Under the pieces are notes generated by a model. The model saw only the letters and a list, made by a program, of their open reading frames with translations. It had not been told where the DNA came from and did not search any database. A DNA stretch of 40,747 nucleotides from Marivita sp. (GTDB lineage: Bacteria; Pseudomonadota; Alphaproteobacteria; Rhodobacterales; Rhodobacteraceae): NCBI RefSeq assembly GCF_020055635.1, contig NZ_JAIPUT010000041.1, positions 1 through 40,747 of the forward strand, given 5' to 3'. The position numbers were made by a program, and so were the translations under genes. Below are positions 8,189 through 33,120 of the stretch, piece after piece (within the stretch, counting starts at the first letter, position 1; every line of letters begins with the position of its first letter).

Positions 8189-8253
8189 AAGCGCCTTCGA
8201 AGGCGCTTTCCTGCATTTTCGAAAATGCAGCCAAGGGCGTTCGAACGCCCTTG
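8189..8253. repeat. Cluster of three perfect TTCGAA-centred palindromes
   Basis: Three perfect inverted repeats lie nearly end to end: 8189-8208 (arm AAGCGCC), 8211-8230 (arm CTGCATT) and 8232-8253 (arm CAAGGGCG), each centred on TTCGAA. They fill the convergent gap between the FG-GAP gene and yebC, ending 3 bases from the yebC stop. As RNA each forms an 8-9 bp hairpin on either strand, so a two-way terminator or 3'-end stabiliser is likely. Confidence 0.85.
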
Positions 8254-8256
8254 CCG

Positions 8257-9006
8257 TCAGGCCTCCTCGAGCTGCGCCATGACCTCGTCGGAGGCTTCGA
8301 AATTGGTGGTGACGCGCTGCACGTCGTCATCGTCTTCCAGCGCATCCACAAGCTTCATCAGCGATTGCATGCCGTCGAGGTCAAGCTCGGTCGTGGTGGT
8401 CGGCTTCCAGACCAGCTTGGTCGAATCCGACTCGCCCAAGTCCGCCTCGAGCGCGGTGGCGACCTCGTTCAGGTCGGTGTCCGTGCACCAGATCACGTGA
8501 CCGTCCTCGGTCGATTCCACATCCTCGGCCCCGGCTTCGATCGCGGCCATCATCACCGTGTCTGCGTCGCCCACGCTGGCGGGGTAGGTGATTTCGCCCT
8601 TGCGGTCGAACATGAAGCCCACGGAGCCGGTTTCGCCCAGGTTGCCGCCGTTCTTGGTGAAGGTCGAGCGGACCGTCGAGGCCGTCCGGTTGCGGTTGTC
8701 GGTCATTGCCTCGACGATCACCGCCACCCCGTTGGGTCCGTAGCCCTCATACCGGATTTCCTCGTAGTCCTCGCCCTCGCCGCCGGACGCCTTCTTGATG
8801 GCGCGTTCGATGTTGTCCTTGGGCATGGAGTTGGACTTGGCTTCCTTGATCGCCAGGCGCAGGCGCGGGTTCTTGTCGGGATCGGGGTCGCCCATCTTGG
8901 CGGCGACGGTGATTTCCTTGGAGAACTTGGAAAAGAGCTTGGCACGCATCTTGTCCTGACGCCCCTTGCGGTGCTGGATGTTTGCCCATTTGGAATGGCC
9001 GGCCAT
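8257..9006 (-). CDS. yebC: YebC/PmpR family protein
   Basis: This 249-residue protein has the family's full length and opening ([18 protein letters not shown]), then [18 protein letters not shown] ([15 protein letters not shown]), [12 protein letters not shown] and the [18 protein letters not shown] stretch. YebC proteins were long annotated as transcriptional regulators; more recent work links several members to ribosomes stalled at proline runs. The name therefore does not settle the role. In many Proteobacteria yebC neighbours ruvC; here it stands alone between two convergent partners. The C-terminal EDDDD-rich helix region (about 222-230) is ordinary for the family. Confidence 0.95.
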
Positions 9007-9128
9007 GATGTCTGGTCCTTGATTGTCGGAGATCGAGAGGTTTTGGCGTCTTTACCGCAGAAGGCGGGGCGGGAACAAGTTGCGTTTTCGTGCTTTGCGC
9101 GCCGGGTGGCATTGGGTATGAGACCCGG

Positions 9129-9869
9129 GTGAAACCGTTCCTGATCCTGCAATTGCGCCCCGAGGCCGAGGCCAGCGATGGCGAATACGCGGCGTTTCTC
9201 GCCAAGGGCGGGCTGTCGGAGGCGCAGGTGCATCGCGTCTGCCTCGACCGGGAGCCGCTGCCCGACGGGGTGCAGCTTTCCGATTATGCCGGGGTCATCG
9301 TCGGCGGCGGGCCGGGCTGCGTGTCGGATGATCCGGCGGGCAAGGACCCGGTGGAGGCGCGGATCGAGGCGGACATCCTGTCGCTCATGCCCGAAATCAC
9401 CGCCCGCGATGTCCCGTTCCTGGGATGCTGCTACGGCATCGGCATCCTGGGGCATCACCTGGGCGCCGAGGTGTCGAAGCGGCGCTACGGCGAACCGGTG
9501 GGGCCGGTGACCTGCCGCGTGACGCCAGACGGCGCCGTTGACCCGTTGGTCGCGGGGCTGCCGGGGGTCTTCGATGCCTTTGTCGGCCACAAGGAAGCGG
9601 TGCAGGAATTGCCCGAGGGGTGCGTGCACCTGCTGGCCTCGGACCCGTGCCCCTTTCAGATGATCCGTCACGGGCGCAATGTCTATGCCACGCAATTCCA
9701 CCCCGAGGCCGATGCCGGCGTGTTCGAGGACCGCATCCGGATCTACCGTCACAAGGGCTATTTCGCGCCCGAGACGGCGGATGATCTCGTTGCCATGTGC
9801 CATGCCAGCGATGTGACGGTGCCGGTCGAGATCCTGCGGCGTTTCGTGGCGCGCTACGGCAGCCGCTAG
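9129..9869 (+). CDS. Class I glutamine amidotransferase, GMP synthase-like
   Basis: This 246-residue stand-alone GATase domain starts at GTG 9129 (VKPFLILQLRPE). The upstream frame from ATG 9090 adds 13 residues that do not fit the family. The nucleophile elbow is GCCYG with Cys101, and the His/Glu pair is His191 and Glu193 in TQFHPEAD, so the triad is complete. VGGGPGCVSDD (58-68) is the oxyanion-side strand. Such orphan domains resemble GuaA's N-terminal half and may act on small metabolites or gamma-glutamyl compounds; no partner synthetase lies nearby, so the substrate is unknown. It is divergent from yebC and followed after 6 bases by a palindrome pair. Confidence 0.88.
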   Translation: MKPFLILQLRPEAEASDGEYAAFLAKGGLSEAQVHRVCLDREPLPDGVQLSDYAGVIVGGGPGCVSDDPAGKDPVEARIEADILSLMPEITARDVPFLGCCYGIGILGHHLGAEVSKRRYGEPVGPVTCRVTPDGAVDPLVAGLPGVFDAFVGHKEAVQELPEGCVHLLASDPCPFQMIRHGRNVYATQFHPEADAGVFEDRIRIYRHKGYFAPETADDLVAMCHASDVTVPVEILRRFVARYGSR

Positions 9870-30741: not shown

Positions 30742-32085
30742 ATGCGTCTGTCCCGCTATTTCCTGCCCGTTCTCAAAGAAACCCCGTCCGAGGCCCAGAT
30801 CGTCAGCCACCGGCTGATGCTGCGCGCCGGCATGATCAAGCAGGCCAGCGCCGGCATCTATTCCTGGCTGCCGCTGGGCTACCGGGTGCTGCGCAACATC
30901 GAACAGATCGTGCACGAGGAACAGGCGCGCGCAGGCCATATCCCGATGCTGATGCCGACGCTGCAATCGGCGGATCTGTGGAAGGAATCCGGCCGGTATG
31001 ATGCCTACGGGCCGGAAATGCTGCGGATCGAAGACCGTCACGGGCGCGACATGCTGTACGGCCCCACCAACGAAGAGCTGATTACGGACATCTTCCGCTC
31101 CCATGTCGGCAGCTACAAGGACCTGCCGCTGACGCTCTATCACATCCAGTGGAAATTCCGCGACGAGATCCGCCCGCGCTTTGGCGTGATGCGGGGCCGC
31201 GAGTTCCTGATGAAGGACGGCTACAATTTCGACCTGACCAAGGAAGACGCGCTGCACGCCTACAACCGTCACCTTGTCAGCTACCTGCGCACCTACGAAC
31301 GGATGGGGCTTCAGGCGATCCCGATGCGCGCCGATTCAGGCCCCATCGGCGGCGACGACACGCATGAATTCCTCGTGCTGGCGGAAACCGGTGAATCCGA
31401 GGTGTTCTATGACAGCGAGATCACCGACCTGAAATTCGGCGACCGCGCCATCGACTATGATGACAAGGCCGAGTGTCAGGCGGTGCTGGAAGAGTTCACC
31501 TCGCGCTATGCCCGTACCGACGAAACCCATGACGAGGCCGAGTTCGCCAAGGTGCCCGAAGAGCGCCGCCGCACCGCGCGGGGCATCGAAGTGGGGCAGA
31601 TATTCTATTTCGGCACCAAGTATTCCGACGCGATGGGCGCGACCGTGGCCGATGCGGATGGCAACCGCGTGCCGGTCCATATGGGTAGCCACGGCATCGG
31701 CGTCAGCCGCCTTCTCGGCGCGATCATCGAAGCCAGCCACGACGACAAGGGCATCATCTGGCCCGAAGGTGTCACGCCCTTCCATTGCGGCATCGTCAAT
31801 CTCAAGCAGGGCGATGAAGAGGCCGATACTGCCTGCCAGTCGCTCTATGACAGCCTGACGTCGCTGGGGCTCGATCCGCTCTACGACGACCGGAACGAAA
31901 GGGCCGGGGCAAAATTCGCCACGATGGACCTGATCGGCCTGCCATGGCGCATCACCGTCGGGCCGCGCGGGCTCAAGAACGGCGTGGTCGAACTGACGTC
32001 GCGCCGCACCGGCGAGAGTGAGGAACTGCCCCCGCACGAGGCAATCGAGCGGGTTGCGGCGATTTACGGCAAGGTCAGCGCCTGA
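30742..32085 (+). CDS. proS: Prolyl-tRNA synthetase, short type without editing insert
   Basis: This is 447 residues from ATG 30742 ([19 protein letters not shown]). The class II core is complete: motif 1 around [20 protein letters not shown], motif 2 in [21 protein letters not shown] and motif 3 in [16 protein letters not shown], with a C-terminal anticodon-binding domain (about 345-440). The roughly 180-residue INS domain that edits Ala-tRNA(Pro) in E. coli ProRS is missing, as is usual in alphaproteobacteria, which rely on a free-standing editing protein (ProXp-ala/YbaK-like) instead. No such protein is encoded in the window. No strong ribosome site precedes the ATG. Confidence 0.96.
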
Positions 32086-32128
32086 GCCGCCCTTGCGGGA
32101 CAACCATCGCATTTGCTAGCCAGAGGGC

Positions 32129-33067
32129 ATGAACCGCCTTCTGGCTCTTTTGATCGGGCTGTGGTCCGCGACCCCGGTTGCGGCCTCCGATCCCGTGACG
32201 TTTTTCGGGGCATGGGCCCGCGCCGAAGGGGCCGAAGCCACCGCGATGCGCGTTCTCCTTGACGGCGCTCCGGTTCACGGCAGCAACGCCGACCGACCCG
32301 TCGATCTGGCGTCGAACTCCAAGGCGATCACAGCGCTCTGCGTTCTGAGCCTTGTCGACGAGGGTGCGCTGAGATGGGACACCACGCTGAGCGAGGCGCT
32401 GAGGCAGGACGCGCCGCCTGCCACTCTTGCCGAGCTTGTCACCCACAGCGCCGGGATCGGGCGGGACAGCACCCAACTTCGGATGGGATTCTGGCTGAAC
32501 GAGGATCAGCCGCGCCACGCCCATGTCACTGACCTCGTTCTGAACCGCAGCAACCAGCGTGGCACGCGGGGGCAGTTTGCCTACAGCAACGAGAACTACG
32601 CGCTGCTGGGCCGGATCATCGAACTGACAACCGGTGGCGCTTACGAAACCGCCTGCCGCCGACGGGTGCTTGAACCTGCTGGCGTGTCCGGCGCGTTGTC
32701 GCCGCGCTTTGCCGCCTTTGCGGCCTGGGGCGGCTGGCGCATGTCCATGGCGGACCATGCGGCGCTGCTCTGGCACTGGTTCGGGCCGGAAGGGCGGGTC
32801 GGGCGTGATCCGCTGGCCCTGCCGCATATTGCGCGGGCAGGGGACAGTTACTACGGGCTGGGAATGAACTATGTCGAGGACGGGGCGGGGTTGCGCATGT
32901 CTCATGCCGGCGCGATCGCGATTCCGTTCGGACCCAAGACGGGGGCGTTCGCCGTGGTCTATCCGTTCGGCGCCGTGGCGGCGATGGGTTATGACGTGGC
33001 GGTGGCCGACCCGGGGCGGTTCAAGGCGCTGTCGGACGGCTTGGCGACCGTTCTCCGCGCGCCCTGA
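32129..33067 (+). CDS. Secreted serine hydrolase, class C beta-lactamase fold
   Basis: This 312-residue protein has a signal peptide (about 1-19, cleavage near VAAS). The three active-site elements of the PF00144 family are present: SNSK (Ser62 and Lys65), YSN (Tyr152) and HAG (His259) in place of KTG. It is shorter than AmpC and lacks its inserts, so a peptidase or esterase acting on peptidoglycan or small esters is more likely than antibiotic resistance. It lies 43 bases after proS on the same strand and may be cotranscribed. A GTCGAC palindrome pair follows the stop. Confidence 0.87.
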   Translation: MNRLLALLIGLWSATPVAASDPVTFFGAWARAEGAEATAMRVLLDGAPVHGSNADRPVDLASNSKAITALCVLSLVDEGALRWDTTLSEALRQDAPPATLAELVTHSAGIGRDSTQLRMGFWLNEDQPRHAHVTDLVLNRSNQRGTRGQFAYSNENYALLGRIIELTTGGAYETACRRRVLEPAGVSGALSPRFAAFAAWGGWRMSMADHAALLWHWFGPEGRVGRDPLALPHIARAGDSYYGLGMNYVEDGAGLRMSHAGAIAIPFGPKTGAFAVVYPFGAVAAMGYDVAVADPGRFKALSDGLATVLRAP

Positions 33068-33078
33068 GCCCAAGCGCC

Positions 33079-33120
33079 GTTTGCGTCGACGCAAACACCC
33101 GGATGCGTCGACGCATCCGG
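33079..33120. repeat. Pair of perfect GTCGAC-centred palindromes
   Basis: Perfect inverted repeats at 33079-33096 (18 bases, arm GTTTGC) and 33099-33120 (22 bases, arm CCGGATGC) lie two bases apart in the 60-base convergent gap, ending 7 bases before the glmM stop. The arms of the second recur in the imperfect copy at 3774-3793. Confidence 0.85.

What the first reader, a model, noticed from the sequence alone, without database searches (positions are those of the whole stretch)
8189..33120. Family of thirteen perfect tandem palindromes at gene ends with two mutually exclusive centres
Seen: perfect 18-24 bp inverted repeats at 8189-8253 (three), 9876-9917 (two), 12818-12911 (four), 23742-23783 (two) and 33079-33120 (two). 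Neighbours in a cluster are almost always two bases apart. The first three clusters are all TTCGAA-centred, the last two all GTCGAC-centred. Arms differ from copy to copy, yet each copy is perfectly symmetric; seven of nine TTCGAA arms start AAG. They occupy four of the seven convergent junctions. Inference: symmetry held despite arm divergence implies selection on hairpins (RNA) or cruciforms (DNA), or a copying mechanism that regenerates symmetry. The fixed spacing and cluster-wide centre suggest a systematic origin, not independent terminators.
Basis: partly seen in the sequence, partly recalled or inferred. Interest (0 to 1): 0.72.

Follow-up and report, generated by a model that had tools for sequence, protein, structure and literature searches.

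The report
Tandem hairpin repeats at gene ends
A marine bacterium carries many short runs of two to four perfect DNA palindromes right behind the stop codons of its genes; they belong to a repeat family shared by related bacteria, whose two arms often change together during evolution although they do not look like ordinary transcription stop signals.

Summary
In detail: all 13 palindromes are exact. They belong to a dispersed repeat family. AAGN4TTCGAAN4CTT occurs 80 times in this genome, 0 times as reversed control, in all 17 same-genus genomes examined, and in 2-4-hairpin arrays of other Rhodobacteraceae. The genus is probably Marivita (matching contig lengths).

Unit: a 20-nt hairpin, 8-bp stem, TNNA loop (usually TCGA), usually 1-5 nt apart. 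Arrays sit at gene 3' ends (142 of 149 intergenic clusters), median 8-10 nt from the stop codon. At five orthologous junctions 33 of 102 stem pairs show two-sided compensated changes, about 14 in shuffles; one-sided decay is common too. 'Mutually exclusive centres' is only a tendency: 81 of 92 clusters are uniform.

They are not typical U-tract terminators: 12% T behind the stem. G·U does not exceed A·C, unlike candidate U-tract terminators nearby, but that contrast weakens under a stricter filter. GTAG/CGTC tags are rare; a Y1 transposase match occurs in only 4 of 18 genomes. Best reading: a REP-like family of DNA hairpin modules, new as a variant, kept or tolerated at 3' ends. The function is inferred.

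The parts
8189..8253 (.). Class A (TTCGAA) array of three hairpins: 8189-8208, 8211-8230, 8232-8253, between the ends of an FG-GAP protein gene (+) and yebC (-)
   Evidence: exact palindromes; Pfam of flanking genes; array aligned in 12 genomes including this one, compensated changes, third hairpin closed by G-C in 7 of 12
9876..9917 (.). Class A pair 9876-9895 and 9898-9917 between a glutamine amidotransferase gene (+) and a CitMHS/TrkA-C transporter gene (-)
   Evidence: 12 of 16 relatives carry a class B (GTCGAC) pair, intact or partial, at this junction; G006 and G011 carry class A
12818..12911 (.). Class A array of four hairpins: 12818-12841, 12844-12863, 12866-12885, 12890-12911, behind xseA and ahead of ymdB, both on the - strand
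   Evidence: many relatives have three or four hairpins, the extra one being GTCGAC-centred in G001, G004 and G012
23742..23783 (.). Class B (GTCGAC) pair 23742-23761 and 23764-23783 between DUF3422 (+) and ppx/gppA (-)
   Evidence: orthologous copies in relatives, intact to decayed, missing or unrecognisable in some
33079..33120 (.). Class B pair 33079-33096 and 33099-33120 between a beta-lactamase-family gene (+) and a phosphomannomutase gene (-)
   Evidence: orthologous copies in relatives, missing in some
3754..3793 (.). Probable decayed class B pair: remnant of the first hairpin at about 3754-3771, second hairpin 3774-3793 with loop ACGA, next to the stop of the - strand gene ending at 3800
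   Evidence: inverted repeat, sequence; the assignment to class B is by eye
3720..3752 (.). Ordinary 14-bp hairpin, terminator candidate, in the same junction, for contrast

Best explanation
The palindromes are units of a dispersed, REP-like family of hairpin repeats of Rhodobacteraceae. Each unit is a 20-nt DNA hairpin: an 8-bp stem, usually with AAG at the base in class A, around a TNNA loop, usually TCGA. Units stand mostly 1-5 nt apart in arrays of mostly two to four, often in a recurrent order. Shown: dispersal, array structure, 3'-end location, compensated change, a different class at one and the same junction in different species, presence or absence of whole hairpins and of whole arrays at orthologous sites. 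Inferred: units spread and are exchanged as whole hairpin modules through a step that needs the DNA hairpin (single-stranded or cruciform), so that mainly symmetric copies propagate. Copies survive behind stop codons because promoters and coding sequence do not tolerate them, and some may serve the cell there as transcript-end hairpins.
For: 80 sites against 0 reversed-control sites; 48 of the 50 listed sites are fully symmetric although the N4 blocks are free. The same ordered hairpins recur at separate loci with different linkers. The same kind of arrays occurs in Tropicibacter, Nioella, Roseovarius, Histidinibacterium, Mameliella, Maritimibacter and Ruegeria. 0 of 25 own-genome clusters with two flanking genes (23 distinct junctions) lie in divergent junctions, which hold 30% of the intergenic bases. 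At the 9876 junction the class differs between species, at least 2 changes on the tree. Two hairpins resembling those of the 12818 array appear inside the 8189 junction of G004 and G012 (by eye). In sense orientation G·U does not exceed A·C: 5 v 7 at co-directional junctions, against 25 v 3 for candidate U-tract terminators (Fisher p 0.003; on unique hairpins 5 v 7 and 24 v 3, p 0.004). Of 32 alternative pair types at orthologous stems, 20 are transversions.
Against: No mobilising enzyme was found: Y1 transposase (PF01797) matches occur in 4 of 18 genomes, although all 18 hold the repeats; no other enzyme was searched for. No target duplication or clean empty site was demonstrated. The 3'-end placement would also fit a selected RNA function. 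One-sided change is commoner than two-sided between close genomes, against rapid restoration of symmetry. The G·U test rests on few events: with at least seven of eight pairs required it gives 3 v 3 against 10 v 1 (p 0.10) at co-directional junctions and 10 v 9 against 23 v 7 (p 0.12) in all. The 142 clusters include orthologues.
Confidence: 0.45

Rival explanations
1. The arrays are transcript-end signals working as RNA: bidirectional or U-less terminators, or tandem hairpins that block 3'-5' exonucleases after Rho termination. Selection on RNA pairing keeps the arms complementary.
For: Location behind stop codons, median 8-10 nt; convergent junctions of at least 40 bp carry arrays in 14 of 56 cases, co-directional ones in 9 of 278. 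Four of the six RNA folds tried have z of -4.9 to -5.4. Compensated changes. Convergent junctions with arrays less often have a candidate U-tract terminator (2 of 14 v 17 of 42), but p is 0.11. G008 has another kind of large hairpin at three of the junctions, at one of them besides a class B pair.
Against: T makes up 11.6% of the 8 nt behind 321 perfect stems; 5 of 321 have four or more T. G·U not above A·C, unlike candidate U-tract terminators at the same loci (not significant under the stricter filter). In Bacillus cereus terminators 89.5% of A-U/G-C switches with inferred intermediate passed through G·U (PMC5381666, passages read). Some orthologous junctions lack any array. Two of the six RNA folds are weak (z -2.5 and -2.2), and the 33079 pair folds as one long stem, not as two hairpins.
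Confidence: 0.33
2. The symmetry is mutational: template switching at the replication fork turns imperfect inverted repeats into perfect ones, so perfect arms need no function.
For: The mechanism is described in E. coli (PMC7202029, passages read). Absence of a G·U preference and frequent two-sided transversions fit.
Against: It does not explain the conserved TCGA loop (307 of 375), the AAG base, the number of units per array, or the 3'-end location. One-sided or other changes outnumber two-sided ones between close genomes, 111 v 28.
Confidence: 0.14
3. The palindromes are double-stranded binding sites for a dimeric DNA-binding protein.
For: Conserved ends and core in class A.
Against: The variable inner pairs stay complementary, which a spacer would not need; asymmetry is found mostly in the central two bases (46 of 375) rather than in the stem pairs (at most 24 of 375 per pair; the closing pair was required to match), which is the pattern of a hairpin, not of a dyad site.
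Confidence: 0.06
4. Chance, base composition or an assembly artefact.
For: None found.
Against: Simulations, reversed-pattern control, orthologous copies in other genomes.
Confidence: 0.01

Closest known systems
REP elements, GTAG super-family with RAYT/TnpA-REP (PMC3733652, passages read; PMC2817692 and PMC8266576, search listing only)
   Same: Short intergenic palindromes, high copy, mainly between convergent and co-directional genes, subfamilies with alternative complementary stem residues
   Different: GTAG adjacent in only 2 of 375 hairpins, Y1 transposase in only 4 of 18 genomes, no excess of G·T over A·C, tandem arrays of mostly 2-4 hairpins that usually differ from one another
CGTC-tagged repeats, predominantly of Alphaproteobacteria, including dRS3 and RPE-4/6 (PMC3733652, section 6 read)
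   Same: 8-9 bp stem, 4-5 nt loop, alphaproteobacterial, no dedicated transposase known
   Different: CGTC adjacent in 3 of 375 hairpins and a CCA tail in 23 of 375; clusters frequent here, described there as rare
Intrinsic and bidirectional terminators (PMC5381666, passages read; PMC1852404, search listing only)
   Same: Hairpins behind stop codons, shared by convergent genes, compensated evolution
   Different: No U tract, no G·U excess, conserved loop sequence, dispersed repeat family
Double-hairpin elements of fungal mitochondria (recalled; a paper search that included the name listed only unrelated papers)
   Same: Tandem hairpins with compensated arms that appear to move (recalled)
   Different: Organelle elements; no sequence relation tested

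Membership tests
REP (general sense) | 20-40 bp palindromic repeat in many intergenic copies | tested here: met
   80 sites of one subpattern in the genome; 27 clusters in 810 kb, 1 of them inside a called gene
REP (general sense) | Preference for convergent and co-directional junctions | tested here: met
   82 convergent, 60 co-directional, 7 divergent of 149 intergenic clusters
GTAG REP | Unpaired GTAG at one end | tested here: not met
   2 of 375 adjacent, 4 of 375 within 8 nt
GTAG REP | Associated RAYT tyrosine transposase | tested here: not met
   PF01797 in 4 of 18 genomes that all carry the repeats; the list of class A places, in contig order and cut at C30, shows none on contig C26, which holds all three own PF01797 matches
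CGTC repeats | Unpaired CGTC/TGTC/CCTC at one end | tested here: not met
   3 CGTC, 5 TGTC, 0 CCTC adjacent of 375; within 8 nt 29, 16 and 2
CGTC repeats | Stem 8-9 bp, loop 4-5 nt | tested here: met
   stems mostly of 8 bp or more and 4-nt loops; in the counts loops of 4 were what was searched for
Intrinsic terminator | U-rich tract behind the stem | tested here: not met
   11.6% T in the 8 nt behind 321 stems
Intrinsic terminator | RNA 3' ends at the site | not testable with these tools
   no transcript data
Mobile element | Movement with an empty site or target duplication | tested here: inconclusive
   presence/absence and difference of class at orthologous junctions, no duplication demonstrated
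Known Rfam family | Match above gathering score | tested here: not met
   0 matches in the window

The most novel reading that the evidence does not exclude
A transposase-less DNA replicator: hairpin modules that spread and replace each other whole between gene ends through a DNA-hairpin intermediate, so that arm symmetry is inherited by copying rather than by RNA selection. The loop and the base of the stem carry the recognition signal, and the inner stem is free to vary as long as it pairs.
Probability: 0.22. Interest if true: 0.75.

Novelty: new variant of a known kind. Interest (0 to 1): 0.5.

Why it matters
Rhodobacteraceae are abundant marine bacteria (recalled), and this family marks a sizeable fraction of convergent gene ends in the genome sampled (14 of 56 junctions of at least 40 bp). 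It gives a natural test of what keeps palindromes symmetric: RNA function, DNA-hairpin-dependent copying, or template-switch repair. The comparison of G·U with A·C against terminators at the same loci is a simple test that could be applied to other REP families with more data.

Tried and rejected
Rfam scan of the window: nothing. Strict class B pattern over 198 family genomes: only the own genome, too strict to say that class B is absent elsewhere. Spacers between identical hairpin pairs in genome G075 share no clear homology. One array against plasmids: no match. Viral contigs: 4 stretches, so hardly a phage element. The broad GTCGAC pattern was uninformative. Papers: ten searches ran. None listed a paper whose title or abstract start describes this family; no supplement was looked at, and most subscription journals are not in that library.

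Weaknesses: gene calls are my own codon-usage calls, not an annotation. Of the 27 own clusters two pairs are halves of one array (C7 12009/12081 and C9 35962/36010), so the 25 with context are 23 junctions. The 142 clusters include orthologues, so G·U and A·C were recounted on unique hairpins; the contrast with the control holds at six of eight pairs (p 0.001 and 0.004) but not at seven (p 0.12 and 0.10). 'Candidate U-tract terminators' are my own hairpin-plus-T-tail finds. One search counted one false hairpin of junction 4 (TTTTACC, 7 pairs); one search drops it, and counting its printed lines leaves 31 of 95 pairs with a two-sided change. The contrast of transversions with B. cereus is weak because base composition differs. 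Rows dropped from the 17 genus genomes before counting: 5 in J1, 6 in J2, 6 in J3, 4 in J4, 6 in J5, because the array was absent, of the other class, truncated or unalignable; four outgroup genomes were left out throughout.
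Full report
Observation. The window is contig C16 of a 4.94-Mb genome in 192 contigs. The thirteen palindromes are exact. Order-1 Markov sequence rarely yields one with arms of ten or more. They form five clusters; four occupy four of the seven convergent junctions by my gene calls, and one lies behind xseA ahead of ymdB. A probable sixth, decayed pair lies at 3754-3793.

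Identity of the genome. The genus is therefore most likely Marivita, family Rhodobacteraceae; this is an inference from lengths and titles.

The family. The pattern AAGN4TTCGAAN4CTT has 80 places in the genome and none for the reversed pattern. Of the 50 places listed, 48 are fully symmetric, although the pattern leaves the inner four pairs free. All 16 other genomes of the genus that were searched have 5 to 40 places. In the family, 50 of 198 genomes have at least one match, but many of these are single and some are not symmetric; six, this one included, have 50 to 99. A scan of public genomes for AAGCGCNTTCGAANGCGCTT reported 113 stretches and listed 80: 63 bear names that I place in Rhodobacteraceae or Rhodobacterales, 4 are named only as Alphaproteobacteria, and 13 are others. 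One search shows 50 of these loci: in all 13 others the site stands alone, several being imperfect; most of the remaining 37 show two to four hairpins side by side with recurring stems.

Anatomy. In 810 kb of the own genome (16%), 27 clusters contain 57 hairpins with a TCGA loop and a stem of at least 7: 42 closed by T-A (class A), 14 by G-C (class B), one by A-T. Some class A arrays share an order, best seen at C22:31021, C22:117641 and C2:13376: an AAGGAC- or AACGGC-type hairpin, then ACGCGGTTT, then AAGCGCG, then AAGCCAT or a variant, while the linkers differ. Class B is a pair, one hairpin of the type GATGCG-TCGA-CGCATC beside the stop codon of one gene and one of the type GTTTCCG or GTTTGCG farther out, in the cases that I compared by eye. 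Across 113 sequences (1.8 Mb; own stretches, relatives and named loci) there are 142 measured clusters with 375 hairpins: 66 clusters of two, 35 of three, 31 of four, 9 single and 1 of five. 70 of 3000 stem pairs are mismatched. The loop is TCGA in 307 and T..A in 353 of 375. By position, asymmetry is 24, 10, 9, 7, 4, 11, 5 and 0 of 375 from the outermost to the closing pair, then 14 and 46 for the outer and inner loop positions. The closing pair was required to match, so its zero is by construction, and hairpins were anchored on near-perfect ones, so the mismatch rate is biased low. The central two bases break symmetry most often, as expected for a hairpin loop and not for a double-stranded dyad.

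Location. Own sample: 15 clusters convergent, 10 co-directional, 0 divergent, 1 at an edge, 1 inside a called gene; two pairs of clusters are halves of one array, which leaves 14 convergent and 9 co-directional junctions. The sample has 106 convergent, 525 co-directional and 106 divergent junctions with 14,058, 49,479 and 26,972 intergenic bases. Absence from divergent junctions has p 0.0002 against the share of bases, counted on 25. Larger sample: 82, 60 and 7, plus 7 intragenic and 7 at edges; at least three of the 7 divergent cases look like one locus in related genomes. Distance to the stop codon: median 8 nt at convergent and 10 nt at co-directional junctions, with 110 of 164 and 44 of 60 between -3 and 15 nt.

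Evolution. Orthologous junctions were taken from 16 same-genus genomes. On alignments made without structure, 993 of 1102 cells are Watson-Crick, 33 of 102 pairs have a two-sided change, and 64 cells carry one. Shuffled partners give 905, 14 and 23, none of 500 reaching the observed values, and partners slid by one to three columns give 4 to 11 such pairs. One false hairpin (7 pairs) was included there; without it 947 of 1033 cells pair, and the printed lines show 31 of 95 pairs with a two-sided change. Shuffles do not correct for relatedness of the genomes. Against strict symmetry, close genomes differ more often on one side than on both (111 v 28 over eight overlapping pairs), and in some lineages, such as G005, the arrays are visibly decaying. 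In this set stem columns differ in 186 of 1217 comparisons, loop columns in 48 of 305 and linker columns in 27 of 99, so constraint on the stems is moderate.

Exchange. At the 9876-9917 junction the window, G006 and G011 have class A; twelve relatives have class B, intact or partial; G013 has neither, and G015 keeps only what look like remnants of class B. On a tree of six concatenated proteins, where G013 and G015 were labelled 'none', the class B label needs at least two changes even on well-supported branches. The third hairpin at 8189-8253 is closed by T-A in five and by G-C in seven of twelve genomes. The third hairpin of the 12818 array is TTCGAA-centred here and GTCGAC-centred in G001, G004 and G012; G005 has a decayed copy, and in eight others the alignment puts a gap of that size. 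In G004 and G012 the 8189 junction holds additional hairpins, two of which resemble those of the 12818 array. Units thus come and go as whole hairpins, and the two centres can stand in for each other.

RNA or DNA. Three tests bear on ordinary terminators. First, no U tract: 11.6% T in the 8 nt behind 321 perfect stems, 5 of 321 with four or more T. Second, wobble: in sense orientation at co-directional junctions mismatches are G·T 5, A·C 7, other 15, and at convergent ones 8, 10 and 25. 107 candidate U-tract terminators at gene ends of the same loci give G·T 44 and A·C 11, and 25 against 3 at co-directional junctions; Fisher p is 0.001 and 0.003. On unique hairpins the result is the same (12 v 17 against 42 v 11, p 0.001; co-directional 5 v 7 against 24 v 3, p 0.004), but if at least seven of eight pairs must match, it is 10 v 9 against 23 v 7 (p 0.12) and 3 v 3 against 10 v 1 (p 0.10). 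The wobble test is therefore suggestive, not decisive. Third, of the 32 alternative pair types at orthologous stems 20 are transversions, whereas in Bacillus cereus terminators 79% of switches were A-U/G-C and 89.5% of those with inferred intermediate passed through G·U (PMC5381666, passages read); base composition differs, so this comparison is weak. In favour of an RNA role stand the 3'-end location, the folding, and a non-significant tendency for arrays to replace U-tract terminators (2 of 14 v 17 of 42, p 0.11). Folding: as DNA, the 8189 array has z -6.7; as RNA, four of six folds have z between -4.9 and -5.4 and two -2.5 and -2.2, and the 33079 pair folds as one long stem.

Agent. Tyrosine transposases of the REP type (PF01797) match in 4 of 18 genomes, though all 18 carry the repeats, and the list of class A places, cut at contig C30, shows none on contig C26 where the own three matches lie. 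GTAG and CGTC stand next to 2 and 3 of 375 hairpins. The one class A pattern scanned is nearly absent from viral contigs (4 stretches), and one array gave no plasmid match.

Verdict. I file it as a new variant of the REP kind of repeat, not as a member of the GTAG or CGTC super-families, whose defining tags were tested and not met. The best-supported mechanism is spread and exchange of DNA hairpin modules with retention at gene 3' ends; a transcript-end function is the main rival and could also be a secondary use. Which it is needs transcript 3'-end mapping and arm-compensation tests.

Noticed in passing
L209, L213, L215-L218, L220 (genome G075): In another genus identical TTCGAA hairpins occur in pairs 92-118 nt apart with unrelated spacers, in L209 directly behind an ordinary U-tract hairpin: a different architecture of the same unit, perhaps REPIN-like.
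   Followed up: partly
L227, L228 (genome G021): The six class A places of this related genus all have AT-rich stems (AAGAATTTTCGAAAATTCTT and the like).
   Followed up: no
L042, L071 (genome G008, junctions 1, 4 and 5): G008 has another kind of hairpin (CCGGGGGG-ctgg-CCCCCCGG and the like) at three gene ends where relatives have palindrome arrays, at junction 4 besides a class B pair; a similar one lies at C1:9453 of the own genome.
   Followed up: no
L070 (genome G001, junction 5): Three successive class B pairs within about 260 nt at one gene end, suggesting local multiplication of the pair.
   Followed up: no
window 3720-3793: An ordinary 14-bp hairpin and a probable decayed class B pair stand side by side in one convergent junction.
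   Followed up: partly
window 36500-36522: Inverted repeat AAAATGCC-acgaagg-GGCATTTT in an intergenic stretch between two - strand genes.
   Followed up: no
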